DNA from: Saprospiraceae bacterium
GTDB lineage: Bacteria > Bacteroidota > Bacteroidia > Chitinophagales > Saprospiraceae
Assembly: GCA_028279185.1 (NCBI GenBank)
Contig: JANQSS010000258.1
Span: 124,001 to 188,000, forward strand
Reading direction: 5' to 3'
Length of the DNA stretch: 64,000 nucleotides
Shown here piece by piece: positions 27,781-51,890 of the stretch. The position numbers and the translations under genes were made by a program. The stretch's first letter is position 1. Every line of letters begins with the position of its first letter. The notes under the pieces were generated by a model. That model did not search any database. It saw nothing but the letters and a program-made list of their open reading frames with translations, and had not been told where the DNA came from.

Positions 27781-27830
27781 GAAATCGAAATACTTGTCGA
27801 TTACTCTTTTAATTCTTTACATTTTTTAAT

Positions 27831-28388: not shown

Positions 28389-28425
28389 TCTATGTCATAT
28401 TGTTTTTTAATTCAAATTCACAATA

Positions 28426-28499: not shown

Positions 28500-28506
28500 G
28501 TATTAT

Positions 28507-36362: not shown

Positions 36363-36367
36363 GTTCA

Positions 36368-37360: not shown

Positions 37361-37369
37361 TTGTTCAAT

Positions 37370-37441
37370 TACTGACAACGGTTAATGATACCTGCCGTCT
37401 GAGCTGTAAGCGAAGATGGCATGGTATCTAGTGTTAGTCAC
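37370..37441 (-). repeat. attC-like site of cassette c11
   Basis: Plus strand TACTGACAACGG … AGTGTTAGTCAC. Right core GTTAGTCAC pairs 9 of 9 with GTGACTAAC at 38009. The cassette gene's stop codon lies in this core. Confidence 0.9.
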
Positions 37442-37994
37442 TGGCTTTTTCAACTTTTCCAATTCTGTTAATCCAAAGATAATCACTAAGGCTCGGGTCC
37501 ACCAAGATCTTCTCTCCAGATTTCAGGTTCGTTAACTGGTTGAAATCGTGATCTTTGAAAAATGGATTTTCAACATATTGATGGAGATTCATTCCCCAGA
37601 GTTTCAGTTGACCAATTTTATGTTCAGCTTTGATTTTATCCTGTAATCTGTGCTTTAATATTAAATAGTTGGAAATGGAATTGAACATAGCAGAATATCC
37701 AACGCAGTTTGCTTGTTTTGAATTGATTAATTCATTTGGATTGTCAGAAGTTTGCTGGGATGTAAATTTCAATATGTTGCAAGTCAGTTGAGTCGAGATT
37801 TCCACTATTTTATTAATATCCATTTTTGTGCCCTTAACTTTTTCGTCAATTTTTTTAATAAGATCTTGATTTGTTATTTCAACGTTAACTCTTGTTCCAA
37901 TTTCGTCATATTTAATACTTGATCTATAAATGAATCCTCGAAGCAGGAAAATCATCAGAATTGATATTCCAATTATTTTAGTCGTTCTCTCCAT
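37434..37994 (-). CDS. Membrane-anchored transglutaminase-like protein (cassette c11)
   Basis: 186 residues: one N-terminal transmembrane helix (IIGISILMIFLLRGFIY) and a transglutaminase-like Cys-His-Asp arrangement, CVGYSAMFNSISNYL for the Cys, HQYVENPFFKDHDF for the His and LVDPSLSDYLW for the Asp. Such folds act as proteases or amidases or bind peptides. Target unknown. The stop TAA coincides with the attC core GTTAGTCAC. Confidence 0.7.
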   Translation of the reverse strand: MERTTKIIGISILMIFLLRGFIYRSSIKYDEIGTRVNVEITNQDLIKKIDEKVKGTKMDINKIVEISTQLTCNILKFTSQQTSDNPNELINSKQANCVGYSAMFNSISNYLILKHRLQDKIKAEHKIGQLKLWGMNLHQYVENPFFKDHDFNQLTNLKSGEKILVDPSLSDYLWINRIGKVEKASD

Positions 37995-38008
37995 TCTATT
38001 TCTTGCTT

Positions 38009-38080
38009 GTGACTAACGACCCGCATAAATGGCGCTTCGAGCTTTTGCTCGTAATGAACATTTTATGCATTGTTCTGCTC
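38009..38080 (-). repeat. attC-like site of cassette c10
   Basis: Plus strand GTGACTAACGAC … GCATTGTTCTGCTC. Right core GTTCTGCTC pairs 9 of 9 with GAGCAGAAC at 38785. Central stem GCGCTTCGAGC / GCTCG around TTTT. Confidence 0.9.
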
Positions 38081-38090
38081 AGTTTTCTTT

Positions 38091-38753
38091 TCATTTGAAT
38101 TTTAGGATGAATTTTTCTCTCTGTAATTCTTTTGGGTATTCCATTCCTTTTTCGTAGTGGCTTGTTGCAAAAACAACATAAATATCTTGGTTTATTTTTT
38201 CAATAGGGTAATTGTATTCACTTGCCTCATATTTTCTTTCATCTCGCTTATCTAAATCATAGATATTTTCAACTGTAACCTCTGCGTGAACAATTCCGCC
38301 TTTTGTAGTTACTCCTTTATCCATTCTGTACCAATCAATATTCTCATCGTAAAACCAAACTCCATGATAGGTTTGGTCTCCAACATAAATATCTTTGCTT
38401 TCATTAAATCTATCTTCGTTTCCTGTTTTTATTGAGACAAATCTGCAAATTTCGTTGATACCTTCAGCTGATTCTTCATCACATTTGAAAATATTCTCTG
38501 TTTCTGGATAATCGTAATAATGTGTTCCCCAAGAATTTGACACAAAAACATCTTTCGTTTTGATGAGTGTCAATTTGTATTTAAATGGTTTTTTCTTTAA
38601 CTGGATTACATTGTTTTTTTCTTTAACTAATTTCCCGTTCTGCACTAGTTCAACTTTAAAATAGGTTTCTTCTACTGACTTTTCACCTTTTTTCAATGTA
38701 CTACATGACAAAAACATTGCTATCGAAATTGTAATCAGAATTAGATTTTTCAT
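38091..38753 (-). CDS. Lipoprotein of unknown function (cassette c9/c10 unit)
   Basis: About 220 residues from Met at 38753; the first 17 codons of the longer frame lie in or next to the attC. Signal LITISIAMFLSCSTLK with lipobox LSC. The mature part has a beta-rich DVFVSNSWGTHYYDYPE and YVGDQTYHGVWFYDENIDW. No family recognised. Unit bounded by cores GAGCAGAAC (38785) and GTTCTGCTC (38072). Confidence 0.68.
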   Translation of the reverse strand: MKNLILITISIAMFLSCSTLKKGEKSVEETYFKVELVQNGKLVKEKNNVIQLKKKPFKYKLTLIKTKDVFVSNSWGTHYYDYPETENIFKCDEESAEGINEICRFVSIKTGNEDRFNESKDIYVGDQTYHGVWFYDENIDWYRMDKGVTTKGGIVHAEVTVENIYDLDKRDERKYEASEYNYPIEKINQDIYVVFATSHYEKGMEYPKELQREKFILKFK

Positions 38754-38784
38754 CTTAATTTTTTCGTTTATGTTTTTCTTAATT

Positions 38785-38857
38785 GAGCAGAACGGTAATG
38801 ACATATGGAGTAGCGAAGCGATAGCGAGTCATTCCAGCATGTCTAAAGTTATCTTTT
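38785..38857 (-). repeat. attC-like site of cassette c9
   Basis: Plus strand GAGCAGAACGG … AAAGTTATCTTTT. Right core GTTATCTTTT pairs 10 of 10 with AAAAGATAAC at 39533. Stem GACATATGGAGTAGCGAAGC / CGAGTCATTCCAGCATGTC with mismatches. Confidence 0.9.
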
Positions 38858-38860
38858 GTT

Positions 38861-39520
38861 TCAAAATTCCACATTTATCATTGGTGCATTTCCAAGTTCT
38901 ATTTCCTGAGTTTCGTCACGATTGGATACTTCTTCTGAGTTTAGATAATACACAACCTCAATATTCATCGTTTCAGCGTTAGCGCCCCTGTATACAACTG
39001 TTGTGTCTACGCTCGCTACAATATCCCTTATCGTTGTTTGTCCAAAATAAAGACCATCATCGCTGACAATTCGAATTCTTACTCTATTATAATCAATACT
39101 CGGTTCACCAGATATACACACATCAATATCGACCAATTCCTTCATTTGATATTCAAAGAAATTTGTTTCACCTTCCGCAATTCTAACTACACCTGATGAA
39201 TTTGGCCAAAATCTATCTGCAAAACGATACCTCAATTCGTACTTCTTTGCAGCTTCAGTTATAAATATTGTTAATGAAGTTCCTAGTGAATCCGTTCGTA
39301 AAGTTTCCAATCTGATTTCTTGGCTTGCAAAAGTAAACCCTTCTGAGTCCTCAACTAGATCAAAAGTGATGTCCACCATGGGATTCCCTGTAAAGGCATT
39401 TGTAGCTAGAATTTCAATTGAAGTTTCAGCTCCACCAACATCATCTTTGACACAGCCTAAGGTATTTATCATTAAAATTATTAATGAAGAAATTACTAGT
39501 GTTTGATATGCTTTTTTCAT
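38861..39520 (-). CDS. Lipoprotein of unknown function (cassette c9)
   Basis: About 219 residues from Met at 39520, since the longer open frame begins in the attC. Lipobox in LIILMINTLGCVKD. The rest is beta-rich and acidic (VDITFDLVEDSEGFTFAS, YELRYRFADRFWPN, VVRIAEGETNFFEYQMKEL), like carboxypeptidase-regulatory or Ig-like domains on Bacteroidota lipoproteins. Function unknown. Confidence 0.66.
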   Translation of the reverse strand: MKKAYQTLVISSLIILMINTLGCVKDDVGGAETSIEILATNAFTGNPMVDITFDLVEDSEGFTFASQEIRLETLRTDSLGTSLTIFITEAAKKYELRYRFADRFWPNSSGVVRIAEGETNFFEYQMKELVDIDVCISGEPSIDYNRVRIRIVSDDGLYFGQTTIRDIVASVDTTVVYRGANAETMNIEVVYYLNSEEVSNRDETQEIELGNAPMINVEF

Positions 39521-39532
39521 AATTGTTCTAAT

Positions 39533-39603
39533 AAAAGATAACGGTTCGGATATCAATCGTGCCGTCGCGAAGCGGGCATGATTTGATATCTAATGTTACT
39601 TGC
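39533..39603 (-). repeat. attC-like site of cassette c8
   Basis: Plus strand AAAAGATAACGG … AATGTTACTTGC. Right core GTTACTTGC pairs 9 of 9 with GCAAGTAAC at 41293. Stem GGATATCAATCGTGCC / GGCATGATTTGATATC. Confidence 0.92.
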
Positions 39604-39611
39604 TACCTTTT

Positions 39612-41153
39612 TTATTCCAACTTTATAAATTGTCCAAGACAAGCTTTGTCGTCTTGGACAATCGTCAGATTGTATACACTAGGTGGTAAATGAGAAATTT
39701 TCAAATAATTATTCCGTGTTCTAATAGCGCTTATTAATTGCCATCGTTGATTATGTATATATACAGTTTTCTCTACGTTCATATAATTTAAGGGGAGAAT
39801 CACGGTACTACTGGAAGGGCTTGAAACAAATCTACAATCTTCTCTTAATCGACTATATGTTGAGTTCTGTATATTATCAAGCTCTAACACCCAAAGGTCA
39901 AAAGAGCCATAGTTGTTCTGGACATCCGCATCCATGGATTTCGATCCCCCAAATAGCACTATTGTCCCATCACTCAACAACAAAAGATCGTCTATTACAT
40001 CATCTTCACTTCCCCCAAAGTTCTGTTCCTGCAGCACGCCTCCACTTTGATTCATCTCAACCAACCAGGCATCCCTTTCACCATAGTTATTGTCAAGATC
40101 AAAATCATCGGATCGTGAAAATCCTCCCAAAATGATTGTTCCAACATTTGTTTCTTCGATAGAAACGATTCTATCAAAATCGGATCCACCAATACTTTTC
40201 TCCCAAACAAAGTTCAAATTGGAGTCAATTTTCGCAACCCAAGCATCATAACTGCCGTAATTTTGACTCATATTCCCGTCATTAGAAGTAGTAGGACCAC
40301 TAATCAAGTAGTGATAATCTTCTGTTTCGAAAACAACTGGCCATAATTCTGCTCTGCTTCCTCCAAATACAGCACTCGATAAAATCACACCATCTTCATC
40401 GATTTTAAATAACCAAAAATCCGTACTTGTCCCAGAAGTACCGACATCCAAATCATTTGAATTACTTGATGCCGATATAAGAAAATCGCCATTGGTTAGT
40501 TCAATGATATTTTCAGGAAAGTCATAACCAGATCCTCCATAATTCTTTTGCCAAATCAAATTACCAAGCCGATCAATTCTCATTATTATGACGTCTCTTT
40601 CACCGTAATTATGTTTAAAATCTCCATTTCTCGAGTCTGACGAAAGTAATACGAGAAAATCTCCATTTTCAATTTCCAAAATTCTCCTGCCAAAATCATT
40701 GCCTGAACCACCAAATGTTTTGCTCCATAAAATATTACCAAGATGATCTAACTTCAATATCCAAACATCATTCTCGCCGTTATTCTTAGGCACATGACCA
40801 TCTTTAGACCTGCTCGAACCACAGAAAACGAATCCGTCGTCACTTGTATATATAATATCCACATTATCATCATCTTGTGATCCGCCAAAACTAGTTTCTG
40901 AAATTAAATTTCCACTACTATCTATCTTGATCAACCACATATCCCTACCACCAAGATTTAAACTGACATCGTTATCAGATGAAACTGAAATGCCTAAAAC
41001 ATAATATCCGCCATCCATCAGCTTAATAGCTTTTCTCGTGCCATCAGCTCCACTGCCGCCATAACTTCGCTCCCAGGATATATCCACTTGACATTGTGCG
41101 TACTCTTGACCGAAAATCATTAAACAAAACAATACGTTTCTTAAAAGCTCCAT
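39612..41153 (-). CDS. Secreted repeat protein, delta-60/WD-like (cassette c8)
   Basis: About 513 residues from Met at 41153 (MELLRNVLFCLMIFGQEYA is a signal peptide). Seven or so ~55-residue repeats share the pattern WxKxYGGSGxD … DGGYYVLGxSxSxDxD … GxxDxWLxKIDSxGN, a beta-propeller of the delta-60/bacterial kelch type. The C-terminal ~70 residues (YNLTIVQDDKACLGQFIKL) look like a sorting domain. Probably exported by type IX. The longer start was rejected as cassette leader sequence. Confidence 0.78.
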   Translation of the reverse strand: MELLRNVLFCLMIFGQEYAQCQVDISWERSYGGSGADGTRKAIKLMDGGYYVLGISVSSDNDVSLNLGGRDMWLIKIDSSGNLISETSFGGSQDDDNVDIIYTSDDGFVFCGSSRSKDGHVPKNNGENDVWILKLDHLGNILWSKTFGGSGNDFGRRILEIENGDFLVLLSSDSRNGDFKHNYGERDVIIMRIDRLGNLIWQKNYGGSGYDFPENIIELTNGDFLISASSNSNDLDVGTSGTSTDFWLFKIDEDGVILSSAVFGGSRAELWPVVFETEDYHYLISGPTTSNDGNMSQNYGSYDAWVAKIDSNLNFVWEKSIGGSDFDRIVSIEETNVGTIILGGFSRSDDFDLDNNYGERDAWLVEMNQSGGVLQEQNFGGSEDDVIDDLLLLSDGTIVLFGGSKSMDADVQNNYGSFDLWVLELDNIQNSTYSRLREDCRFVSSPSSSTVILPLNYMNVEKTVYIHNQRWQLISAIRTRNNYLKISHLPPSVYNLTIVQDDKACLGQFIKLE

Positions 41154-41292
41154 AGGAATTACAATTTTAAAATAGTACATAAGAAATAAAATTCGCAATA
41201 ATGTTCAATGCTCAAATGGCTGTATCTTCTGATCCGCATGTTTGATTCGTTTAACATTATTCGAACTTTTGTAATAAATAAGTTTCTTGGTT

Positions 41293-41365
41293 GCAAGTAA
41301 CGTATTGGTGATATGTGGCAGACGCAGCGTAGCAAGTCTGACATCATGATCACTTGTTATAGATT
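41293..41365 (-). repeat. attC-like site of cassette c7
   Basis: Plus strand GCAAGTAACG … CACTTGTTATAGATT. Right core GTTATAGATT pairs 9 of 10 with GATCTATAAC at 42013. Stem GTGGCAGACGCAGCGTAGC / GCAAGTCTGACATC. Confidence 0.87.
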
Positions 41366-41370
41366 GTGTT

Positions 41371-41997
41371 TCATTTACTTGTGATTTCATGAATCAATAA
41401 GTAAATCTTATTTAACTCAATAGGGTTTACTTCATGTTTATCTTTCATCATAACCACAAAATATTCGAGATCCAATTCTCCATTTTCTTTAACTTTTCGA
41501 GGTAAATCAAAATACTTCTTTAGCTCATAATCTCCAATCATCGAATTTTCTGTTATTTCAAAGTTTGAGGATTTATTGATAAAATTAAAGGCGATGACAT
41601 TTGCATCTCTGACTTTAAATGTGTCTCTGACATAGACAAATTGATTCTTTGGGTTAATATGGTAAGCTTCTACTACATTGATGCTATCAATAATTTCGCT
41701 ATTGAATTCTTCCAATTCCTCTGCTGGTACCCAAAGTTCTGTATGATGCTCAAGTCCAACTTTTTCGACTTTGTACTTGGACAAATATTTCTTACTTAAT
41801 TCGAATTCAGTTACAAAACCGTTTTTATATGTTGGCAAGTTCCATTCTCTTGTGATTTGACTCGCGTATTCTTGGTTTGTTACTGGATAGAAAATTGGTT
41901 GTTCTGGCAGTCTTGGGGGAAATTTTTTCCAGTTTGTTTCTTGAATCAAATCAAGTTCAGCTTTGTTTACGGGTCTATATAGTTTAGTAGTTTCCAT
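41371..41997 (-). CDS. Conserved cytoplasmic protein, unknown family (cassette c7)
   Basis: 208 residues, no signal. N-terminal LYRPVNKAELDLIQETNWKKF and FYPVTNQEYASQITREWNL, then VGLEHHTELWVPAEELEEFN. I have the impression of a widespread family whose first half resembles an ADP-ribosyltransferase-like or toxin-like fold, but no catalytic triad can be named with confidence. Sole gene of the cassette. Confidence 0.68.
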   Translation of the reverse strand: METTKLYRPVNKAELDLIQETNWKKFPPRLPEQPIFYPVTNQEYASQITREWNLPTYKNGFVTEFELSKKYLSKYKVEKVGLEHHTELWVPAEELEEFNSEIIDSINVVEAYHINPKNQFVYVRDTFKVRDANVIAFNFINKSSNFEITENSMIGDYELKKYFDLPRKVKENGELDLEYFVVMMKDKHEVNPIELNKIYLLIHEITSK

Positions 41998-42012
41998 TTT
42001 TTAATTCTTCAT

Positions 42013-42087
42013 GATCTATAACGGATGATGGTATGCAGCGTCTCTCGACGTAGGAGAGATATGCTGTCATCACCTATTGTTATGTGC
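42013..42087 (-). repeat. attC-like site of cassette c6
   Basis: Plus strand GATCTATAACGG … TATTGTTATGTGC. Right core GTTATGTGC pairs 8 of 9 with ACACATAAC at 43286. Stem CAGCGTCTCTCGACG / GGAGAGATATGCTG, shared with the site at 34362. Confidence 0.88.
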
Positions 42088-42091
42088 TTTT

Positions 42092-42454
42092 TCACTTTAT
42101 TGAGTTATTAATTATTTTATCGTACGAGGCTACATATCGATCAATATCTCTTATTTTATTCATAAGATTATTCACTTCTATTCTTCTTACCGTTAGATTT
42201 TTATTCAAATCGCCTTCGTGTACTATAAGGTGTCTACTTTCAACAGCTTTTTCAATGTTTTCAAGAAGTCTATTGTTTTGGCTTAATTCTTCTGCATTCT
42301 GACTTAAATCCTTAATGCCATAACATAAGTATAACTTGTCAATCTTTTGAACGTTTTGAGTCACATATTTTGTTAATTTAAAATTCACTTTTTCTTTTAT
42401 TTTTCTAAGCGGCTTATGGTCTTTGAGTAGATTTATTGATTCTTGATATATCAA
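42092..42454 (-). CDS. C-terminal half of a split HEPN protein (cassette c6)
   Basis: 120 codons from a TTG, overlapping the stop of the upstream frame. It carries ESRHLIVHEGD, an R74-x4-H79 HEPN RNase motif, preceded by PLRKIKEKVN. With the frame 42451-42711 it reads as one HEPN protein of the RiboL-PSP type (about 205 residues) interrupted by a -1 frame change. No slippery heptamer is obvious, so a mutation is as likely as programmed frameshifting. As it stands the motif-bearing half may not be translated with its N-terminal half. Confidence 0.62.
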   Translation of the reverse strand: MIYQESINLLKDHKPLRKIKEKVNFKLTKYVTQNVQKIDKLYLCYGIKDLSQNAEELSQNNRLLENIEKAVESRHLIVHEGDLNKNLTVRRIEVNNLMNKIRDIDRYVASYDKIINNSIK

Positions 42455-42711
42455 GCCAGGTTCTTTAATAATTTCAGATAAATCTCTGGATGCACCTTTT
42501 TCTTTAGATAAGGAATGAGAATATCCATAAACTTACTTGTGAAGTAATTATCCATTGTCGCAACTTTTAAAACCAAAACTACACTTAGTATATCAAGATG
42601 CTTGAATTTACCTTTGCTTAAGCTTTTCGGATTTCCGTTTAATTCCTTAAATAATCTGACTAATGAGTCACATCTTTTAGTAATAATCGTGTATTTCTGG
42701 ATTGCATTCAT
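42451..42711 (-). CDS. N-terminal half of a split HEPN protein (cassette c6)
   Basis: 86 residues. FKHLDILSVVLVLKVATMDNYFTSKFMDILIPYLKKK matches the first helices of RiboL-PSP-HEPN-like domains. Its stop TGA overlaps the TTG of the following frame, which carries the RxxxxH catalytic motif. It overlaps the upstream HEPN-like gene by 4 bp (ATGA-type). Read alone it lacks any active site. Confidence 0.62.
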   Translation of the reverse strand: MNAIQKYTIITKRCDSLVRLFKELNGNPKSLSKGKFKHLDILSVVLVLKVATMDNYFTSKFMDILIPYLKKKVHPEIYLKLLKNLA

Positions 42712-43274
42712 TCCGTCTTATTCTGATTTTGAGATGTGTTTACCCAAGAATCAAATGATTTCTTTATGAGAATATTAAACCAAGAACATACTTCTTGACA
42801 AAGTTTTATTTCTTCATCCGAAATTTCAAAACTTTCAGAGTCTTTGGGATGTGTTATTCTATTTCTTATTTTTTTAGCTTCTATTAAATTTGTCCAATTT
42901 GCTGTACCAGTCCCTAATTCAATATGGCCTACAAATAACCTATTAAGAGTTTTAAAAATAAATTTTAAGTTGTCCAACAAGTTTAAATGTAAAGCTGTTT
43001 TCTTTATAGAGCCATTTGATTTTAATTCAAACATTTCTTCTCTTAATATTAGAAGTTCTCCAATCTCTATTGACCTAACATTAGATTTAGGAGCTTCAGC
43101 ATTTAGACAAACCTGCTTTAATATCCATATTGTTCCCTCTATATAGGAGAATAAAGTTCTAACATAAGTTCTCCTTGCAAATTGTGAAGACTTATTTGAA
43201 TTCAATAAGATTTCGGACTCGAACGCATCTTCAAGTAAAGGATTTAATGATTTTTTTATATCTCGTAATTTCAT
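42708..43274 (-). CDS. HEPN-like protein (cassette c6)
   Basis: 188 residues, all-helical in appearance. R137-N-R-I-T-H142 (in AKKIRNRITHPKD) is the RNxxxH motif of HEPN ribonucleases, followed by helices DEEIKLCQEVCSWFN. HEPN proteins are often toxins in toxin-antitoxin or abortive-infection systems. The next two frames overlap it and together encode a second HEPN protein, so the cassette holds a HEPN pair. Which one is toxin is unknown. Confidence 0.68.
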   Translation of the reverse strand: MKLRDIKKSLNPLLEDAFESEILLNSNKSSQFARRTYVRTLFSYIEGTIWILKQVCLNAEAPKSNVRSIEIGELLILREEMFELKSNGSIKKTALHLNLLDNLKFIFKTLNRLFVGHIELGTGTANWTNLIEAKKIRNRITHPKDSESFEISDEEIKLCQEVCSWFNILIKKSFDSWVNTSQNQNKTE

Positions 43275-43285
43275 TTATTCTAATT

Positions 43286-43354
43286 ACACATAACGGTTAG
43301 TGTATGAAGCGTAGTGGCGATTAGCCACTATGATTTTATACACCTTGTTAGCGG
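43286..43354 (-). repeat. attC-like site of cassette c5
   Basis: Plus strand ACACATAACGG … CTTGTTAGCGG. Right core GTTAGCGG pairs 8 of 8 with CCGCTAAC at 44090. Stem GCGTAGTGGCGATTAGCCACTATG. Confidence 0.88.
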
Positions 43355-44079
43355 TTTTTATCTACAAATCTTGCAAAAATCCCTTGTTTTTTATTCTTAA
43401 TCACCCAAATCAATTTAGATGGATGTCTCTCTATAAGTTGATTTGGACCATATTTTCCCCATGCAAAACCATCTTTATTTTCACTTTTCCTTAGATCAGC
43501 TATTGTCCAATTGTCACCAACATATTTTGAAAGAAAAATTCGAAATTCAGGATTGGCATTAATGAATTCTTTTTTCGAAACTGTAGAACCGCCACTTTTC
43601 CATATTGAGAAGGCTGTTTTGTCGTGTATCTCGTTTAAATGGTTGTTAGATGGGTCTTTATAGAATTCTAATAAATGAAATAGGAATTCATTCAAGCTTT
43701 GAGAATTCAATACTATTACTGCTGGATCATGACAGCTAAAAAAGACTTTACCTAGATTTCCATTATCATCAAGGTCAAGAACCCAATAATTCCCAAAACC
43801 ATCATGTGCCAAAGCCGTTGCATTCGGTGTAAGTTCGCTGTATCCGTAGCACGTCGCATTGTCAAAGATTATAGGTGATGGTCCATAACCTTCCCATCCA
43901 GATGTTACTCTGAGAATTTCAATCAATTCAGGATCAATCGTTTTATTTGGAAATTGACTTTTATAGTCTTCAATTTCTTCTTTAGTTAAACCTTTTTGGA
44001 ATTCAAGCTTAAATTCTTGTCCATCTTCATCAATGAATGTGGATTCTCTTAGCTCTTGTATGATTTCAAGATTTGTCAT
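43348..44079 (-). CDS. SMI1/KNR4-family protein (cassette c5)
   Basis: 243 residues. GLTKEEIEDYKSQFPNKTIDPELIEILRVTSGWEGYG opens the SUKH fold; ALAHDGFGNYWVLDLDDNGN and KVFFSCHDPAVIVLNSQSLNEFL are its middle and closing strands. The C-terminal ~70 residues add a variable extension (NPEFRIFLSKYVGDNWTIADLRK). These proteins are often immunity factors, and no toxin partner is adjacent. Its leader from the cassette edge is only ~17 nt. Confidence 0.82.
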   Translation of the reverse strand: MTNLEIIQELRESTFIDEDGQEFKLEFQKGLTKEEIEDYKSQFPNKTIDPELIEILRVTSGWEGYGPSPIIFDNATCYGYSELTPNATALAHDGFGNYWVLDLDDNGNLGKVFFSCHDPAVIVLNSQSLNEFLFHLLEFYKDPSNNHLNEIHDKTAFSIWKSGGSTVSKKEFINANPEFRIFLSKYVGDNWTIADLRKSENKDGFAWGKYGPNQLIERHPSKLIWVIKNKKQGIFARFVDKNR

Positions 44080-44089
44080 TTTTTAATTA

Positions 44090-44161
44090 CCGCTAACGGT
44101 CTCGCATAAACGCAGTAACGACCGTATGGGAGTTATTGCCGTTTTATGCATTGTTAGCTGC
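44090..44161 (-). repeat. attC-like site of cassette c4
   Basis: Plus strand CCGCTAACGG … CATTGTTAGCTGC. Right core GTTAGCTGC pairs 9 of 9 with GCAGCTAAC at 44689. Stem CGCATAAACGCAGTAACGACC / GGAGTTATTGCCGTTTTATGC. Confidence 0.92.
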
Positions 44162-44666
44162 TGGCTTCTTTTTTATTTAATATTTCTTCAATTGGATGAG
44201 AATCGTAAATTGTATTTTGATGTGTTATTTCTTTACCTCTTTTCTCGATTCTGTTTTTAATCAATTTACAAATTTCATCATACTCATTTTGTCTTGAATG
44301 AAAATTTGGCATTGGATAGAATTCTGGATTTAATTTCAAATTTGCAATTATCTTTATTTCCTTTCCATTAAAGGCTTCTATATCTACTGAGATTAAATCG
44401 TATTTGACACCTGTATAAAAAACTGATTTGTCTGATTTTTGAGATGTTCTCATCATGCTATTTATCAAATCTGTTTTGTCATCCAAATATTTGTATCCAA
44501 GAATTCCGTTTGCTTTAATTTCTTTCTTTGAAGGTATTTCATCGAAACTTTGTCCGATAATTAAGAACCCAAATTTTTCATTTTCATTTTCGGTGATTGA
44601 ATGATGAAGTATTAAACCAAATTTTTGGTCTTTGTCTTCTAAAATTATACAATCACCTTTTTTCAT
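44154..44666 (-). CDS. Cytoplasmic protein of unknown family (cassette c4)
   Basis: 170 residues starting MKKGDCIILEDKDQKFGLIL, then FGFLIIGQSFDEIPSKKEIKANGILGYKYL and a charged C-terminus. No signal or catalytic motif is recognised. The first half resembles short beta-strand pairs of ligand-binding folds. Its stop overlaps the attC core at 44153-44161. Sole gene of the cassette. Confidence 0.66.
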   Translation of the reverse strand: MKKGDCIILEDKDQKFGLILHHSITENENEKFGFLIIGQSFDEIPSKKEIKANGILGYKYLDDKTDLINSMMRTSQKSDKSVFYTGVKYDLISVDIEAFNGKEIKIIANLKLNPEFYPMPNFHSRQNEYDEICKLIKNRIEKRGKEITHQNTIYDSHPIEEILNKKEASS

Positions 44667-44688
44667 GGGTTTTCTTTTTTTTTTGCTT

Positions 44689-44757
44689 GCAGCTAACGGA
44701 GCTGTGGTATGCGGCGTAGGCGTTAGCCTATGATGTCATCACCACTTGTTATAGCAC
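44689..44757 (-). repeat. attC-like site of cassette c3
   Basis: Plus strand GCAGCTAACGG … CTTGTTATAGCAC. Right core GTTATAGCAC pairs 10 of 10 with GTGCTATAAC at 46099. Stem GTGGTATGCGGCGTAGGCG / GCCTATGATGTCATCAC. Confidence 0.93.
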
Positions 44758-44762
44758 GTTTT

Positions 44763-45608
44763 TTATAAGTTATTGAAATATTCTTTTTCAATTATTACTT
44801 TTTCAACTAACTCTATTTCAACACCTAACTTCAAATCTTTCAGAGTTTTTGCAAGTTCTATTCCATCAATTAAATCTATTGGAGTGGCTCCATCTCTTTT
44901 TGCTTCTTTCTTTGCATCTGAGGTGAATGTACCAGTGGTAATTAAGAGTCCCTTTTCCGTTCTTCCGCTCATTGCTCCTCTAAAGTCTCGGATTGTTGGT
45001 GAACCAACGCTTCCTTGATATCTTTTACATTGAAAGACTACATGAAAAGAAATGACTACACCTACTTTTAAAATTCCTCGACCATCAATCCCGCCATCGC
45101 CACTCCTTCCTTCAACAGTAACATTTGCAAATCCCAATTCCCTTAATAGCCTTTGGCATAATCGTTCAAATTGATCAGGTTCAATCGATTTGATTGTGTT
45201 TAAAAGCTCATCTTGCCATTCCTCACCAGTTTCATCATTATCGTTTATATCTACAATAGACTGACTTTGCTCTTCCTTGTCAATTTCCTTTACCTTCTTG
45301 TTGACTTCAACTTGGTTGACTTGCTCGGTTTCAAATCCTTTCTTAGTTAATGCCCATACTCCTCTTTTTGAATTTTCTAATAGACCAAATCTTTTCAAAT
45401 AGTTTCTTGTCCATGCAAGTCTATAAACAAACTTTGTTCTATTTCCGCGATGAATCACATTTAGCTCATCTTCGGATAAATTCATAAGTTCAGACACTTT
45501 CTCCTCTATTTCTGAATTTGATCCTGACCCTCCAAGTTCTTTCATGGCCTGAAGGAGTGGGTTAAACATGTCATCATATGTGTAATTAAAATCAATCATC
45601 ATCTCCAA
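44763..45608 (-). CDS. Mrr-like restriction endonuclease (cassette c3)
   Basis: 281 residues. Residues 10-95 form an Mrr N-terminal winged-helix (FNPLLQAMKELGGSGSNSEIEEKV … RGVWALTKKG). Residues 140-260 are the Mrr catalytic domain: GRSGDGGIDG (D175) and VVFQCKRYQG (Q193-x-K195) give the D-QxK nuclease site, then GLLITTGTFTSDAKKEA. Mrr cleaves foreign methylated DNA. The first codons overlap by 17 bp the end of a membrane protein gene, so the cassette encodes two coupled proteins. Confidence 0.9.
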   Translation of the reverse strand: MEMMIDFNYTYDDMFNPLLQAMKELGGSGSNSEIEEKVSELMNLSEDELNVIHRGNRTKFVYRLAWTRNYLKRFGLLENSKRGVWALTKKGFETEQVNQVEVNKKVKEIDKEEQSQSIVDINDNDETGEEWQDELLNTIKSIEPDQFERLCQRLLRELGFANVTVEGRSGDGGIDGRGILKVGVVISFHVVFQCKRYQGSVGSPTIRDFRGAMSGRTEKGLLITTGTFTSDAKKEAKRDGATPIDLIDGIELAKTLKDLKLGVEIELVEKVIIEKEYFNNL

Positions 45609-46083
45609 TTAGGCCTTTTAAAAAATATCGCATTGCATCTGAACCATCCTCTAACCTATCTCTTTCGGCTACCTCTTCATAAACACCTTCACCTTCAAAG
45701 CTTTTCTCAATCTTTAAACCATCTTTCACCAGAGTTTTTGAAAGCTGGTAGGTTTCAGGAAACTCGTTTTTATACTTTTCGATAAACGCAAATGATGTAA
45801 GAATAAAACCTCTATTTTCTCCAGTTTGATAACTATTTGGAAAGTTTTTTAATATCCTCTTTGCATTATTTTCTATAGACTTAATACTTGAAAGTTCTTC
45901 AGATAAATCCGAGTTTTCTCTTTTAATTTCATTCGAATATAAAATTGATAGGCCAACTATTATTACTATAAGAAAGGAGTAAATAATGTGTGCCCATTTT
46001 GGGTTTTCGATCTTAGTAGATATCAATAGCGATATCAATGAAGCTAAGCTGCCTAAAATTCCTATTAACACTATTGGTTCCAT
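45592..46083 (-). CDS. Two-helix membrane protein ahead of Mrr (cassette c3)
   Basis: 163 residues: two N-terminal transmembrane helices (IVLIGILGSLASLISLLIS; HIIYSFLIVIIVGLSILYS), a coiled-coil segment (EIKRENSDLSEELSSIKSIENN) and a cytoplasmic domain. Its end overlaps the Mrr start by 17 bp. Membrane partners of nucleases are common in defence modules; that role is an inference here. Sole occupant with Mrr of cassette c3. Confidence 0.68.
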   Translation of the reverse strand: MEPIVLIGILGSLASLISLLISTKIENPKWAHIIYSFLIVIIVGLSILYSNEIKRENSDLSEELSSIKSIENNAKRILKNFPNSYQTGENRGFILTSFAFIEKYKNEFPETYQLSKTLVKDGLKIEKSFEGEGVYEEVAERDRLEDGSDAMRYFLKGLIGDDD

Positions 46084-46098
46084 ATTTTGTTTTTTAAT

Positions 46099-46170
46099 GT
46101 GCTATAACGGTCAGTTCATGCGGCGTGTGACGTTAGGAGCATGTTCGTCATGTACATTGTTAGCCATAGC
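46099..46170 (-). repeat. attC-like site of cassette c2
   Basis: Plus strand GTGCTATAACGG … CATTGTTAGCCATAGC. Right core GTTAGCCATAGC pairs 11 of 12 with GTTATGGCTAAC at 48431. The last base of the AriB-like stop codon lies at its edge. Confidence 0.92.
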
Positions 46171-47042
46171 TACTCATTTATATGTAATATGATTTTATCT
46201 CTTAGCAAATGTAGATTTTCAAAATTTGAGTTAAATGCAATTCTGTAACAAAAAGAATTAAAATTTCTTGACGAAATCCCAAAGGTGTTTTCAACAACCT
46301 GTTTCAGCATTTTGATAATATACTTACCAGGATAAATATCAATCATATCACTTACGGATTTTACAGCCATTTTTCTTCTTGCTCTAATAAGTTGAGCATT
46401 CAATGTAAGTCTTTTATCAATAGAAGCTAATTCCGTGATTATTTGGTCTTTGTACCAATCAATTTGGTCTTGTTTTAGTGAGAATATTCCTCCTTTATAG
46501 TCAACAAATCTTTCATAACTGAGAGATACATTTTTAAGAGTCGGACATTTACCCTGTACTACAAAGTGCAGGAGAATTAAATCGTTTAGTACATTTAGAA
46601 CGTTATGTAAAATGTCATTCAAATTTAAATCATTCTCCACTGTAACACGATTCAGTTTTGGGTTCTCAGCTATAATATATTCTATATACGATTCTTTATC
46701 GTCTAAATAATTTTCTATTGAATATCTATTCAGGTAAAAGAGGTTATCTTTTTCTATTTTTCTATTTAATAGATCATCGAAATCCCGATCGACTAAATAA
46801 ATTTGTTTCTTAATGTCATAGCAGGTGTCACAATGCTCCAAAACATTGTCTTTCCCGCCTAATGGAAAAATCTTCTCTATTTTAATGTCAGGAAATAATT
46901 TAGATAAGATACGATGATAGAAATTTTCTTGATTTTCATCCTCAATATAAAATGATATATCATTAAATTGAATGTAAAATATATCTTCGGCTGCACGATA
47001 AACGGTGCTTTTTGTGGGTATGCTTTCTTCGACCGTAATCAT
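46170..47042 (-). CDS. ariB: AriB-like DUF4435/Toprim effector of a PARIS-type system (cassette c2)
   Basis: 290 residues. Toprim-like landmarks: FYIEDENQENFY with E34, LGGKDNV at 61-66, IYLVDRDFDD at 81-90 and the DUF4435 signature YLNRYSIENYL at 103-113. In PARIS anti-phage defence AriB is the nuclease effector released when AriA senses a phage anti-restriction protein. The start lies directly after the stop of the ATPase gene, in the same cassette, which is the expected ariA-ariB order. Assigned from domains and order, not from activity. Confidence 0.83.
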   Translation of the reverse strand: MITVEESIPTKSTVYRAAEDIFYIQFNDISFYIEDENQENFYHRILSKLFPDIKIEKIFPLGGKDNVLEHCDTCYDIKKQIYLVDRDFDDLLNRKIEKDNLFYLNRYSIENYLDDKESYIEYIIAENPKLNRVTVENDLNLNDILHNVLNVLNDLILLHFVVQGKCPTLKNVSLSYERFVDYKGGIFSLKQDQIDWYKDQIITELASIDKRLTLNAQLIRARRKMAVKSVSDMIDIYPGKYIIKMLKQVVENTFGISSRNFNSFCYRIAFNSNFENLHLLRDKIILHINE

Positions 47043-47043
47043 G

Positions 47044-48417
47044 CTAATAAGGCATTAAGACTTTGCAATACTCCTTATTATTTCCTACAATTGCGGGGCT
47101 GTGTGTCGCAAATAGCAATTGTGTGTTGCCGGGCATAATACTTTTAATGCCTTCTAAGAAGTGCTCTTGCCATTTAGGGTGAAGAGATAATTCTGGTTCA
47201 TCAATAATAAACAATTTTCCAAGATGAGAATTAAACTTAATGTATGTTAATAATATTAAAATCTGTTGTTCGCCTGAACTTAAATCTGAAAGACGTCTAT
47301 CTTTTTCTATGACTTTTTTATCCTTATTTAAGATGTTAAAAGTAAGTCTTGAGGTGTCCTTATTAAAAAACAAGTCTTTCGATGAGTCATTTAAAAATGA
47401 GTTAATAGTGTCTAAATAATTTTTAATTGGCTTGAATAATCTTTCACTACTTTTTTCAAAATTCTCAAATTCCTTAATTAGTTCTTTGAGTTTTCTGAAT
47501 TGATTGAGATTGGTGATGTATAAAAGTTCAAACCTATCGTCTTCACTTTTAGATCTTATTATTATCGACTTTAGATTTGTGAAGTAGTTCTTGATTTTAT
47601 TCTCATCTGAATCTTTGGTTTTCTTTGATGTTTTGATTACATTTTCCTTTAAATAGTTCTTGACCTTTTCTTCTAAAGACTCAACTTGGTTAATAGAAAG
47701 TTTGGGACTTGATAGTAGTTCATTTATACTTTGCTCTGTTAAAGTCTCGTCAAATGAAGACATTATTAATTTAGATTTTAATCTGTCATTCAAAGTCAAA
47801 ATTTGATTTTTATATTTTGAATATTCCCATCCTGCAAGTTCAGAGACTTTGTCTAAAGGAGTCATCCCATTCTTTCTTGCTTTTCTTACTCTTCTTTTTC
47901 TGCCCTCTGAATCAATAGAGACATAGGTTTCATTCCCTTCTTCAGCATACAGCTGCCTATCTAATCCAATGACAACTGGCTTTGGTAGATAATTAAAGAT
48001 AAAATTCCAAGCTTCTTCCTCATGTGGTTCAGGTCCGAGAGACTTGTATTCCTCCTCAAGACTTATTCGCTCATTTTCGGATTTAATTTGTCGGGGATGA
48101 ATTTTGAAGTCTGCTTGAATTTGAGAATATATTTTATTATTCGATAGATCTTTCAGACTTATAAGAAGTTCTTTCTCGTTTTGTGTACATTCAATAGTAT
48201 AGGTCTTACCTTTTATTTGAAACCAAAGCTTTAAAAGTTCAAATTTATGAGTGCAAAGACTACCAATGGAAGGTGTAATTATCCAGTTTATTACATTTAA
48301 TATACTTGTTTTGCCAGATCCATTTATCCCAACAAGAAGATTAATATCCGGATAAAAGGTTATATCCTTATTAAGGTAACCGTATAATTCTTTTATTTCA
48401 ATTCTTTCTATAATCAT
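47044..48417 (-). CDS. ariA: AriA-like AAA15 ATPase of a PARIS-type system (cassette c2)
   Basis: 457 residues from Met at 48417; the longer frame starts inside the attC and was rejected. GINGSGKTS (30-38) is Walker A, LSSGEQQI the ABC signature, LFIIDEPELSLHP Walker B with D-loop and ATHSPAIV the switch His, so an ABC-type AAA15 ATPase with a central coiled region. It is followed directly by a DUF4435 gene, as in PARIS; OLD-like ATPases with Toprim fused in one protein are excluded by the separate effector. Confidence 0.85.
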   Translation of the reverse strand: MIIERIEIKELYGYLNKDITFYPDINLLVGINGSGKTSILNVINWIITPSIGSLCTHKFELLKLWFQIKGKTYTIECTQNEKELLISLKDLSNNKIYSQIQADFKIHPRQIKSENERISLEEEYKSLGPEPHEEEAWNFIFNYLPKPVVIGLDRQLYAEEGNETYVSIDSEGRKRRVRKARKNGMTPLDKVSELAGWEYSKYKNQILTLNDRLKSKLIMSSFDETLTEQSINELLSSPKLSINQVESLEEKVKNYLKENVIKTSKKTKDSDENKIKNYFTNLKSIIIRSKSEDDRFELLYITNLNQFRKLKELIKEFENFEKSSERLFKPIKNYLDTINSFLNDSSKDLFFNKDTSRLTFNILNKDKKVIEKDRRLSDLSSGEQQILILLTYIKFNSHLGKLFIIDEPELSLHPKWQEHFLEGIKSIMPGNTQLLFATHSPAIVGNNKEYCKVLMPY

Positions 48418-48430
48418 TTTGTTTTTTTTA

Positions 48431-48507
48431 GTTATGGCTAACGGAGTGGCGATACGTGGCGGATTTGGCGATAGCCAATCTGACATCGTCATCGCTTGTT
48501 ATACACC
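48431..48507 (-). repeat. attC-like site of cassette c1
   Basis: Plus strand GTTATGGCTAACGG … CTTGTTATACACC. Right core GTTATACACC pairs 10 of 10 with GGTGTATAAC at 49608 in the attI-like site. Stem GGCGATACGTGGCGG / CCAATCTGACATCGTC. Confidence 0.93.
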
Positions 48508-48512
48508 GTATT

Positions 48513-49586
48513 TCATCCTTTGTTCTTCATTTCCATTTCTGCTAAATAATCGAGCGAATTGTTGCCTTCTTGGTCTCCTTCGCTTATGAATTTTGAGATT
48601 GTTCCAAGGTCAAGTGGCCTTATACTGTGATGAAACATATTGAACAGTTTTGAGGTTAAAAGGCCTCTAACAAAATCATTCGTGTCTATTTCTTTTTCAT
48701 TGTTGAGTCCATAACAAAGTGAACTCGCTATTAGGTCTGATACTTGCACTTGTTTAAAATCCTTTGAATCAACCAATTCAACTTTAGTGAATTTTAAAGG
48801 ATAAGTCATTCTACTTTCTCCAAACCCAACTTCTTTCTCTTCCATCTTTGTTGGATTCGATAGTTTCATAATCATAGCATGCCAAAATTCAATTGCTTTT
48901 GAATTGTCATGTATTATCTCAAATTGTGATCCTAATTCCTTGTACCAATCATCAGCTAATACATTAAATGTTGGAAAAGTTAGATCAATAATATATGGCT
49001 TTATTGCTTCTAATATGTGTGCTTTGATTTCTTTTGAATCCTCAATTATTGTCAAAAAATGTACTGCATCTTTATCTTCAAGTGATTCATTTAGTTGATG
49101 TGTAGCCAGGTAAAAAACATCCATGTTCTCTTGACTCGGTTTTCTTACTAAATTTTGAAATGATGTGTAAAAATCTCCAACCAAGGCTTTGTCCCAAGAT
49201 TGTTCGCAAAAGATATAAAGTAGGTTTGTGATTATAATATTTGATCTGTCCTTGTAGATGTCCTTCCCCATTTCGTACATGACCGGTTCTATAAACCGAT
49301 CTACAATATGTCCAATTAGAACAAGCTTCTTGTTAGCTACATAGTACTTTATATTGTGCACTGAAATTAAATCATGATTGCAGAAATCTAATATTTGTTG
49401 TTTTGATTTAGCGTATTTTTTGAGTGCTTTGAAGTGCAATTCATCTGCGGCAGAATCGAAAACTTCCAGAAGTTTCCCAACTTCTTCATTAGAGTAGTTT
49501 ACAGAAGCCAATGCGAAATGAGGTTGATTTGGGTCAAGTAAATTTTGACCAGTATTTCCAGATTCATCAAAGGCTATTATTGGCAT
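48513..49586 (-). CDS. DUF3800 protein (cassette c1)
   Basis: 357 residues. The opening MPIIAFDESGNTG with D7-E-S-G10 is the DUF3800 signature, a RNase H-like fold; LVGDFYTSF and a late QVSDLIASSLCYGLNN supply other acidic residues, and the middle region is helical. DUF3800 proteins are frequent in phage and defence loci but lack a defined activity. It is the first cassette after the integrase's attI-like site, hence possibly the latest insertion. Confidence 0.85.
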   Translation of the reverse strand: MPIIAFDESGNTGQNLLDPNQPHFALASVNYSNEEVGKLLEVFDSAADELHFKALKKYAKSKQQILDFCNHDLISVHNIKYYVANKKLVLIGHIVDRFIEPVMYEMGKDIYKDRSNIIITNLLYIFCEQSWDKALVGDFYTSFQNLVRKPSQENMDVFYLATHQLNESLEDKDAVHFLTIIEDSKEIKAHILEAIKPYIIDLTFPTFNVLADDWYKELGSQFEIIHDNSKAIEFWHAMIMKLSNPTKMEEKEVGFGESRMTYPLKFTKVELVDSKDFKQVQVSDLIASSLCYGLNNEKEIDTNDFVRGLLTSKLFNMFHHSIRPLDLGTISKFISEGDQEGNNSLDYLAEMEMKNKG

Positions 49587-49607
49587 TCGTTTCTTTTTTT
49601 CGTTTAT

Positions 49608-49655
49608 GGTGTATAACTCCCCTATAACCCGAACATTCCTGTATCCGAGTTACGG
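49608..49655 (-). other. attI-like site 2 (at the intact integrase)
   Basis: Minus strand runs from the integrase stop: CCGTAACTCGGATACAGGAA, then TGTTCGGGTTATAGGGGAGTTATACACC. The stretch up to GGGAGTT is shared with sites at 29342 and 51684, while the bases after GTT differ and belong to each following cassette. That places the crossover at G/TT as in integrons. Confidence 0.85.
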
Positions 49656-50789
49656 TTTTTCAAAATTTAAATTATCTAATGGACTACTAATCGAAGTGAC
49701 TACTTCTGTGCTCACGTGGGTATAAACCATCGTCGTCTTCACATCCGCGTGCCCTAATAATTCTTGTATAAACTTAATACTAATTCCGCCATCATGCAAG
49801 TGCGTCGCAAAACAATGACGCAATACATGCGGTGTCACACGCTGGCTCAATTGCGATCGCATAGCGGCACGCTTCACTATTTTTTGCACACTACTCGCAC
49901 TATACTTTCGGCCAGATTGCGTACCTTCAAATAAATAAACCACCGGCTTATAGGCGTCACAATATCCCTGCAACGCTTCTTTTAACGCTTCTGCAAGCAT
50001 GACAATGCGGTCTTTTTTTCCCTTGCCTCCTGCTATGAAAACCTGGTTTCGATCCCACCTGATATCGCAGAGTTTGATTCCGAGCAATTCACTTAGTCGC
50101 AGTCCGCAGGCATACAACGTCGTAATGATCGTCTTATGCTTTATATTCTCAGTGGCATTGATTAATCTTGCCACTTCGCTCTTGCTCAATATACGGGGCA
50201 ATCGATAGCTTGATTTAGGACGTTTGACCTGATTAATGACGATACTCGGATTGAATATTACTTTTTCAAAATAAAACTTTATAGCATTAACGTACCGATG
50301 GACCATGCTCTCAGATACGCGCCGAGCACTTAGCTCTGACAAAAATCTGTTTACCGTCTGCGTATCCGTATGCTGTAAAGTTTCGCCTCCGGTAAAATTT
50401 TTAAATGCAACTAAAGGCCCTATATAAGACTTAACCGTGTTCCAACTATAGCGCATCTGAATCATCATGTCTGTCACTTCTTTAACTAACGAACGATCAC
50501 CTTCCGAAAATTTGGATAAAAGGTGTGCTTGCTTATCTGCCAAAGAAGGAGAATTAATAGATGTCTGACTCAAGTCTCCCGGATTTAGTCGATTGCAAAT
50601 GTCAACCCCTTGTCGTGCATATCCCTCAATGAGTCGTTCAATCGTTTTAGTATTGTTCGGAATTACCCAGCGCTCATACCCTTTTTGATATTCCCGATTG
50701 GGCACAGATTTTATCAATTGAAAATCGATTCCAAAACCCACCAACTTGACTGCAATAAAATCCGACGTTTCTGGTAACGATAATGACAT
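49650..50789 (-). CDS. Tyrosine recombinase, candidate cassette integrase
   Basis: 379 residues from ATG at 50789. Residues 1-70 form an extra N-terminal domain (KGYERWVIPNN) frequent in Bacteroidota integrases, 85-190 the SAM-like core-binding domain and 200-365 the catalytic domain: R231 (GLRLSE), K256 (GGKGKKD), H321-x-x-R324 (HVLRH), H347 (LLGHADV) and Y356 (YTHV). The tail TEVVTSISSPLDNL resembles IntI. The gap between K256 and HxxR is about 65 residues, without the IntI insertion, so by family it is Xer-like. Its ATG sits inside the attC of the upstream cassette. Confidence 0.85.
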   Translation of the reverse strand: MSLSLPETSDFIAVKLVGFGIDFQLIKSVPNREYQKGYERWVIPNNTKTIERLIEGYARQGVDICNRLNPGDLSQTSINSPSLADKQAHLLSKFSEGDRSLVKEVTDMMIQMRYSWNTVKSYIGPLVAFKNFTGGETLQHTDTQTVNRFLSELSARRVSESMVHRYVNAIKFYFEKVIFNPSIVINQVKRPKSSYRLPRILSKSEVARLINATENIKHKTIITTLYACGLRLSELLGIKLCDIRWDRNQVFIAGGKGKKDRIVMLAEALKEALQGYCDAYKPVVYLFEGTQSGRKYSASSVQKIVKRAAMRSQLSQRVTPHVLRHCFATHLHDGGISIKFIQELLGHADVKTTMVYTHVSTEVVTSISSPLDNLNFEKP

Positions 50790-50839
50790 CTGCTGTGCGA
50801 CCGATAGGGAGCATGGCATGATGTCTAATGTTCTACTTC
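50773..50839 (-). repeat. attC-like site of upstream cassette u1
   Basis: Plus strand GGTAACG … AATGTTCTACTTC. Right core GTTCTACTTC pairs 10 of 10 with GAAGTAGAAC at 51684. The integrase ATG (50787-50789) is inside it. Stem GACATCTGCTGTGC / GCATGGCATGATGTC, like that at 36291. Confidence 0.92.
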
Positions 50840-51669: not shown

Positions 51670-51890
51670 TTATCTTTTGTAATGAAGTAGAACTCCCTTA
51701 TAACTCGAACATTCCGGTATCCGAGTTACGGTTTTTCTAAATTCAAAATTATCCAGAGAACGATTGATCGAAGAGACTACTTCTGTGCCCACATGTGTGT
51801 ATACTATGGTCGTCTTCACATCCGAGTGCTCTAATAATTCGCTTATAAACTTAATACTATTTTTAGCATAATGCAAGAGGGTCGTAAAGT
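51670..51890 (-). pseudogene. Integrase 3' fragment (copy 1)
   Basis: About 200 bp resembling the last ~60 codons of the integrase at 49650 (FISELLEHSDVKTTIVYTHVGTEVV), more diverged than copy 3: HADV is HSDV and SSPLDNL is NRSLDNF. Homology ends near 51887, about 130 bp from truA. It has lost the upstream catalytic residues. An attI-like site follows at its 3' end. Confidence 0.82.
51684..51731 (-). other. attI-like site 1
   Basis: Minus strand CCGTAACTCGGATACCGGAATG, then TTCGAGTTATAAGGGAGTTCTACTTC. Two to three bases differ from sites 2 and 3. GTTCTACTTC pairs with the far end of cassette u1. Confidence 0.78.

What the first reader, a model, noticed from the sequence alone, without database searches (positions are those of the whole stretch)
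49650..50789. A Xer-like, non-IntI tyrosine recombinase appears to drive the array
The enzyme has R231, K256, HxxR, H347 and Y356 plus an N-terminal domain typical of Bacteroidota integrases, but only ~65 residues between the catalytic Lys and HxxR, too few for the IntI-specific insertion that contacts attC extrahelical bases. Yet it sits at the head of an attC-type array with its own attI-like site. Either IntI features were missed or another Xer lineage evolved cassette capture.
Basis: partly seen in the sequence, partly recalled or inferred. Interest (0 to 1): 0.85.

Follow-up and report, generated by a model that had tools for sequence, protein, structure and literature searches.

The report
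Integron driven by an I2-less integrase
A bacterial gene-collecting system (an integron, with its folded-DNA recombination sites and rows of swappable gene cassettes) is run here, and across the phylum Bacteroidota, by a recombinase that lacks the protein insert thought to be essential for integrons, which makes it a possible living relative of the form that preceded ordinary integrons.

Summary
The integrase (minus strand, codons 50789..49650) has the full catalytic set, but only 65 residues between Lys256 and HxxR, against 106 in all 21 canonical IntI measured, so the IntI-specific I2 insertion is absent. Downstream lies a real cassette array: 17 attC-like hairpins, all on the minus strand; 16 cassettes whose first bases are complementary to their own attC (104/112 positions; permutation maximum 72 of 200,000); and an attI directly 3' of the integrase stop. 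The genome (Saprospiraceae) has no canonical IntI. Relatives lacking I2 recur across Bacteroidota. In 80 loci chosen by integrase similarity alone, cassette signatures lie downstream on the coding strand (32, against 1 on the other strand; shuffles average 0.45). In the tree these enzymes group with IntI, apart from XerC/XerD/XerA, outside the monophyletic IntI clade. Closest full-length relatives have about 585 residues and three N-terminal HARP-like repeats. No recombination was shown experimentally. I found no prior report in the open-access library.

The parts
49650..50789 (-). I2-less tyrosine recombinase (379 aa from M11): one HARP-like repeat, SAM-like core-binding domain, catalytic domain with R231/K256/H321/R324/H347/Y356; 5'-truncated relative to ~585-aa relatives
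49615..49652 (-). attI: GGATACAGGAATGTTCGGGTTATAGGGGA^GTT directly after the integrase stop; crossover G at 49617
   Evidence: three copies; first cassette start GTTATACACC is complementary to its own R'' at 48500; conserved in relatives
50773..50836 (-). attC of cassette 50858-51667; overlaps the 5' end and supplies the start codon of the integrase
   Evidence: held out from the model, 28.0 bits; 7/7 complementarity to the cassette start at 51693
51691..51730 (-). second attI copy, preceded by an integrase 3' remnant
51728..51890 (-). integrase pseudogene remnant (last ~53 codons)
29348..29387 (-). third attI copy
29384..29830 (-). integrase 3' fragment (from codon ~242, 1-nt deletion); dN/dS 0.16 against the intact copy over 122 codons
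50778..51692 (-). cassette between the 51.7k attI and the integrase (weak 8-oxoguanine glycosylase-like match, below Pfam cut-off)
48442..49616 (-). cassette 1 after the main attI (DUF3800 protein) with attC 48437-48504
46108..48441 (-). cassette 2: AriA/AriB-like pair (PARIS-type defence) with attC 46103-46165
44697..46107 (-). cassette 3: small membrane protein plus Mrr-like restriction endonuclease, attC 44692-44754
44097..44696 (-). cassette 4, attC 44092-44159
43294..44096 (-). cassette 5: SUKH-family protein, attC 43289-43353
42022..43293 (-). cassette 6: three ORFs, attC 42017-42085
41301..42021 (-). cassette 7, attC 41296-41362
39542..41300 (-). cassette 8, attC 39537-39601 (held out from the model)
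38793..39541 (-). cassette 9, attC 38788-38854 (weak, 13.4 bits with R2; 7/7 complementarity)
38017..38792 (-). cassette 10, attC 38012-38078
37379..38016 (-). cassette 11, attC 37374-37439
36298..37378 (-). cassette 12, attC 36295-36359
28434..29349 (-). first cassette after the 29.3k attI: O-methyltransferase, attC 28429-28496
27840..28433 (-). cassette, attC 27835-27900
27190..27839 (-). cassette with SUKH protein, attC 27190-27243 (held out, E 0.08)
25474..25538 (-). last recognisable attC of the array (held out, 19.1 bits, E 0.048)

Best explanation
This is a sedentary chromosomal integron of a Saprospiraceae bacterium whose integrase belongs to a lineage without the I2 insertion, stem or sister to canonical IntI. 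Proposed mechanism: the integrase gene is transcribed toward the array and ends beside its own double-stranded attI. Cassettes are circles whose attC folds from the bottom strand into a hairpin with an extrahelical base and an unpaired spacer. The enzyme joins attC to attI at G^TT, placing each new cassette directly after the integrase stop codon; attC x attC events excise and shuffle. Without I2, the extrahelical bases must be read otherwise, possibly by the N-terminal HARP-like repeats. Shown here by sequence: the components, their geometry, the crossover points, the recurrence with this enzyme and the absence of IntI. Inferred: catalysis on attC by this enzyme, bottom-strand use in vivo, and the role of the HARP-like repeats. 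The window copy is 5'-truncated and may be weakened or dead; full-length copies exist in relatives.
For: I2 missing: Lys-HxxR 64-65 (69 in a few) against 106 in 21/21 IntI; profile and structure alignments. Array: covariation; one-strand, held-out detection; cassette signature 104/112 against permutation mean 42, maximum 72; bottom strand folds more stably at 16/17 sites. attI: identity ends exactly at G^TT in three window copies and in two contigs of genome G104 (96% before, 38% after). Recurrence: 80 loci picked only by integrase similarity give 32 downstream coding-strand signatures against 1 on the other downstream strand and 0 upstream on the same strand, shuffles mean 0.45, maximum 3, none around the genome's own two Xer genes. 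L126 shows integrase, attI and four cassettes in order. No IntI over cut-off in own genome nor in 20/21 array-bearing genomes. Contigs break within 1.5 kb downstream in 32/80 against 7/80 upstream, as expected of variable arrays.
Against: No recombination assay. IntI1 without I2 is reported to lose all function (eLife 2020, PMC7790495, citing Messier and Roy 2001). The window copy lacks about 200-240 N-terminal residues found in its nearest relatives, and two other copies in the window are pseudogenes. Some relatives' attC (L045) lack the one-base bulge. Four flavobacterial loci have arrays upstream on the opposite strand. HARP similarity is over cut-off in one protein only and the structural search of the repeats was uninformative.
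Confidence: 0.83

Rival explanations
1. The arrays were built by a canonical IntI, past or in trans, and the I2-less recombinase is an unrelated neighbour (a CALIN next to a different integrase).
For: I2 is held to be necessary for attC recombination (PMC7790495, PMC4792948). Canonical IntI occurs in other classes of the phylum (105/395 genomes) and in one same-family genome, G027; one of 21 array-bearing genomes also has it.
Against: 20 of 21 array-bearing genomes and the window's genome have none. The attI lies at the 3' end of the I2-less gene and is conserved with it. Cassette signatures sit downstream on its coding strand 32:1.
Confidence: 0.08
2. The family drives integrons, but the window's copy is an inactive 5'-truncated remnant and the array here is frozen. 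(Compatible with the best explanation at family level.)
For: The protein starts at an attC junction and lacks two of three N-terminal repeats; two other copies are pseudogenes; no full-length copy elsewhere in a 98%-complete genome.
Against: Catalytic and core-binding domains are intact; dN/dS 0.16 between this copy and its 29.3k paralogue over 122 codons, though this may predate the truncation; single-repeat integrases of ~360 aa adjoin arrays elsewhere, for example L045.
Confidence: 0.5
3. A Xer-type recombinase independently evolved cassette capture, unrelated to IntI.
For: Short catalytic domain; NF040815 (XerA-type) is the best-scoring NCBIfam model, 217 bits, just below its 220 cut-off; Foldseek's best E-value is XerA.
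Against: I2-less enzymes and IntI form a clade (100/98) without XerC, XerD or XerA; IntI-like C terminus (SPLDxL) and the same attC architecture and G^TT crossover.
Confidence: 0.07
4. The I2-less enzymes are IntI descendants that lost I2.
For: The branching order between I2-less groups and IntI is unresolved; I2-less as one clade is not rejected.
Against: Loss would have to precede the wide spread in Bacteroidota; no I2-less row falls inside the IntI clade; outgroup Xer enzymes also lack I2.
Confidence: 0.1

Closest known systems
Canonical integrons (IntI with I2, attI, attC cassettes)
   Same: Circular-cassette signature, folded attC with R''/L''/L'/R' boxes, unpaired spacer and usually an extrahelical base, G^TT crossover, attI beside the integrase, one-direction array of diverse genes including defence systems
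   Different: Integrase has no I2 insertion (65 against 106 residues), carries N-terminal HARP-like repeats, lies outside the IntI clade, and is transcribed toward the array with attI at its 3' end
Reverse integrons (for example Treponema denticola; from memory)
   Same: Integrase and cassettes read in the same direction
   Different: Those have a canonical IntI, to my knowledge
XerA / NF040815 'site-specific tyrosine recombinase/integron integrase'
   Same: Closest NCBIfam profile, similar catalytic-domain length
   Different: XerA is not known to me to have an attC array; the window protein is just under the cut-off and groups with IntI in the tree
'Integron-like' subgroup of Smyshlyaev et al. 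2021 (PMC8138268)
   Different: In the passages I read, no attC arrays, attI or cassette capture are attached to the members lacking it
CALINs (attC clusters lacking integron integrases)
   Same: IntegronFinder-type criteria would probably call such arrays CALIN, since the integrase fails the IntI profile cut-off
   Different: An integrase and its attI are present

Membership tests
Integron (functional definition) | Tandem cassettes each ending in a folded attC | tested here: met
Integron (functional definition) | Cassette start complementary to its own R'' (circular form) | tested here: met
   104/112 positions, permutation maximum 72 of 200,000
Integron (functional definition) | attI beside the integrase with crossover at G^TT | tested here: met
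Integron (functional definition) | Integrase recombines attC x attI | not testable with these tools
   needs an in vivo assay
Integron (functional definition) | Cassette promoter Pc and SOS control of the integrase | not tested
   -
IntI (integron integrase family) | I2 insertion in the catalytic domain | tested here: not met
   65 against 106 residues
IntI (integron integrase family) | TIGR02249 score over the curated cut-off | tested here: not met
   200.5 against 265 bits
IntI (integron integrase family) | Falls inside the IntI clade | tested here: inconclusive
   outside the monophyletic IntI clade (100/100) in the best tree, but window + IntI held together not rejected, p-AU 0.114
XerC/XerD | Over the TIGR02224/TIGR02225 cut-offs and groups with Xer | tested here: not met
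   190/189 bits against 335/330; tree excludes Xer; separate Xer genes on C30 and C31
NF040815 XerA-type | Over the curated cut-off | tested here: not met
   217 against 220 bits
HARP (PF07443) domain | Pfam gathering score in the N-terminal repeats | tested here: inconclusive
   met in L126 (35.4 bits, 3 stretches), below cut-off in L117/L120/L124, not seen in the window copy; repeat profile's top PDB hit is the SMARCAL1 HARP domain 4o66, E 3.6e-4

The most novel reading that the evidence does not exclude
attC-based cassette capture predates the I2 insertion: a Bacteroidota-wide family of I2-less integrases runs complete integrons today, perhaps using HARP-like repeats to read folded single-stranded attC, and canonical IntI arose from within or beside this lineage.
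Probability: 0.6. Interest if true: 0.93.

Novelty: new variant of a known kind. Interest (0 to 1): 0.87.

Why it matters
I2 is described as necessary for cassette capture and as found in no other protein, and the origin of integrons is described as a chicken-and-egg problem without known intermediates (PMC4792948, PMC7790495). A natural I2-less integrase at the head of attC arrays is the missing comparison: it makes the order of events testable. It also implies that profile-based surveys, which report almost no complete integrons in Bacteroidota (only Salinibacter in IntegronFinder 2.0, PMC9024848), overlook a large reservoir of cassettes, including defence genes.

Tried and rejected
Rfam on the window: no match. 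A strict hairpin-only attC scan was too narrow for other lineages, replaced by the cassette-signature scan. First MAFFT alignments of attC misplaced the arms, so arms were arranged by hand with the loop masked and the optional first bulge removed; this favours the structure, hence the held-out sites and the independent cassette test. The first cassette permutation mis-assigned two boundaries, corrected. R2 finds no sites at canonical IntI loci, presumably because of its sequence bias; the signature scan does find nine cassettes there (L163). The fold search of the N-terminal repeats gave nothing significant (model pTM 0.44). The idea that the stretch at 36.3 kb is an integrase 5' fragment was dropped: it is an attC resembling the one fused to the integrase. 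The tree cannot say whether I2-less enzymes are sister to or ancestral to IntI. No file of the whole genome was available.

Full report
CHECK OF THE OBSERVATION. Arg231, Lys256, His321-x-x-Arg324, His347 and Tyr356 are invariant among 45 relatives. Lys to HxxR is 65 residues here, 64-65 (69 in a group with Algoriphagus and Belliella) in relatives, 66-73 in XerA and XerD, and 106 in every one of 21 canonical IntI. phmmer against IntI4 (2a3v) gives two blocks with 42 extra residues in IntI between them, and TIGR02249 matches in two stretches with profile positions 178-239 unmatched. The insertion is absent, not overlooked. The genome carries no IntI over cut-off, only its two Xer genes.

THE ARRAY. 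Twelve intergenic hairpins arranged by hand give 90.6% standard pairs and a covariation score reached by 0 of 500 shuffles; sliding the 3' partner by 1-3 columns destroys it. A covariance model finds 16 sites with E<0.1, all on the minus strand from 25.4 to 50.8 kb, four of which were not used to build it; a seventeenth weak one (38788-38854) appears with the broader model. The strand that carries the bottom of the site folds better at 16 of 17 sites, as in canonical integrons. The most telling test does not depend on the model: in a gene cassette the first bases after G^TT pair with the R'' box at the other end of the same cassette, because the two meet in the circle. For 16 window cassettes 104 of 112 positions beyond GTT match, against a permutation mean of 42 and a maximum of 72 in 200,000. 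Cassettes are 0.6-2.3 kb; contents include a DUF3800 protein, an AriA/AriB-like pair, an Mrr-like nuclease and SUKH proteins.

attI AND THE REMNANTS. Directly after the integrase stop lies GGATACAGGAATGTTCGGGTTATAGGGGA^GTT. It occurs three times (49.6, 29.3, 51.7 kb). Upstream of the crossover the copies agree at 82-85%, downstream at 32-35%, and in each case the cassette that follows has a matching R''. In another genome of the family (G104) two contigs agree at 96% up to the same point and 38% after it. The 29.3 kb copy is preceded by an integrase 3' fragment (codon 242 on, with a deletion), the 51.7 kb copy by about 53 codons. The complete-looking integrase is itself cut: its nearest relatives (40-53% identity) have 563-615 codons, most with three N-terminal repeats, and the window protein aligns only from the third repeat, close to where an attC R' box (C^GTTACC) ends. 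That attC (50773-50836) belongs to the neighbouring cassette 50858-51667 (7/7 complementarity with its start at 51693) and supplies the start codon. A simple reading, inferred, is a deletion between that attC and a GTT inside a second integrase copy. Between the intact copy and the 29.3 kb fragment dN/dS is 0.16 over 122 codons, so the gene was long under purifying selection; this says little about the time since truncation.

RELATIVES. A scan of one genome per species returned 80 loci by integrase similarity alone (mostly Bacteroidota, a few records assigned to other phyla). Cassette signatures: 32 downstream on the integrase strand, 1 downstream on the other strand, 0 upstream on the same strand, 10 upstream on the opposite strand (nine of them in four flavobacterial loci, probably divergent arrays). 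Dinucleotide shuffles of the downstream DNA give 0.45 on average, at most 3. The 20 kb around each of the genome's own Xer genes give none, a canonical IntI locus gives nine (L163). First cassettes begin 14-142 bp after the integrase stop in most loci. Contigs end within 1.5 kb downstream of the integrase in 32 of 80 loci against 7 upstream, p 7e-5, as variable arrays would cause. L126 is the clearest case: a 585-aa integrase, attI, then four cassettes. Twenty of 21 array-bearing genomes have no IntI, although several are incomplete drafts. The host family is Saprospiraceae: genome G036 of the same family has the contig (80,169 bp) and integrase of L022, a named Saprospiraceae record. In that family 87 of 150 sampled genomes hold a homologue at E<=1e-40.

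PHYLOGENY. In a 60-row tree IntI is monophyletic (100/100), I2-less enzymes plus IntI form a clade (100/98) without XerC, XerD or XerA, and the window belongs to a same-family clade (100/99) outside IntI. Whether I2-less enzymes are one clade or a grade is open (p-AU 0.463), and placing the window with IntI is not rejected (p-AU 0.114). The IntI stem is long, so this part needs more sampling. Arrays occur on most I2-less branches, which suggests, without proving, that the common ancestor already used attC.

HOW IT MAY WORK WITHOUT I2. In canonical IntI the I2 helix holds the extrahelical bases. Here the N-terminal repeats are the obvious candidates: Pfam HARP (PF07443) is over its cut-off in L126 (three stretches) and weaker in others, and a profile of such repeats from Bacteroidota integrases has the SMARCAL1 HARP domain 4o66 as its best PDB hit (E 3.6e-4). 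HARP domains belong to annealing helicases (PMC4035279). Single-repeat members, the window copy included, do not reach HARP significance on their own. The predicted window structure (pLDDT 86) has a small beta-beta-alpha-beta-beta-alpha domain before a standard two-domain recombinase, with IntI4 and XerA as best matches. A direct structural match for the repeats was not obtained. This is inference.

WHAT IS KNOWN. Escudero et al. (PMC4792948) call I2 unknown elsewhere and pose the chicken-and-egg problem; the 2020 follow-up (PMC7790495) calls I2 necessary and notes the lack of intermediates. IntegronFinder 2.0 (PMC9024848) lists a single complete integron in Bacteroidetes proper. Smyshlyaev et al. 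(PMC8138268) remark that the insertion is not fully conserved in their integron-like subgroup. Ten searches of the open-access library found no report of I2-less integrases with attC arrays; subscription journals and preprints were not searchable, so a prior description cannot be excluded.

VERDICT. Components and geometry of an integron: shown. Integrase without I2, outside canonical IntI: shown for I2, likely for placement. Family-wide role in cassette capture: strongly supported by association, not demonstrated. Present activity of the truncated window copy: open.

Noticed in passing
window 46170-48492: A cassette carries an AriA/AriB-like pair (PARIS-type anti-phage defence) and the next an Mrr-like restriction enzyme; the array looks like a defence reservoir.
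   Followed up: partly
L134 (G000:C134:45000-57000) 5227-9039: A second small attC cluster without an integrase in the same genome; one of its cassette proteins (6250-6798) looks homologous by eye to window cassette protein 37434-37994.
   Followed up: partly
L058, L067, L081, L084 (upstream of the integrase): In four flavobacterial loci the cassette array lies upstream on the opposite strand, the classical divergent integron arrangement, with long ~130-bp attC.
   Followed up: no
L045 11412-15343: The same 282-aa cassette occurs twice, nearly identical, in one array; attC of this lineage show a mismatch or a plain stem where others have a one-base bulge.
   Followed up: no
G104 contigs C85 and C31 (L118, L119): One genome holds a full-length and a 5'-truncated integrase, nearly identical, each followed by attI and a different cassette, paralleling the window's multiple copies.
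   Followed up: partly
G027:C40:3592-4530 (L159): A canonical IntI in a same-family genome, so both kinds of integrase occur in the family.
   Followed up: partly
window 4995-5834: A protein resembling class D beta-lactamases (STFK motif, by eye) lies in the left part of the window, where no attC was recognised.
   Followed up: no
G061:C1 (L131) 1517-2437 and 11042-11962: A short recombinase of this general type is present in two nearly identical copies, each followed by what looks like a transposase gene, apparently a different mobile element.
   Followed up: no
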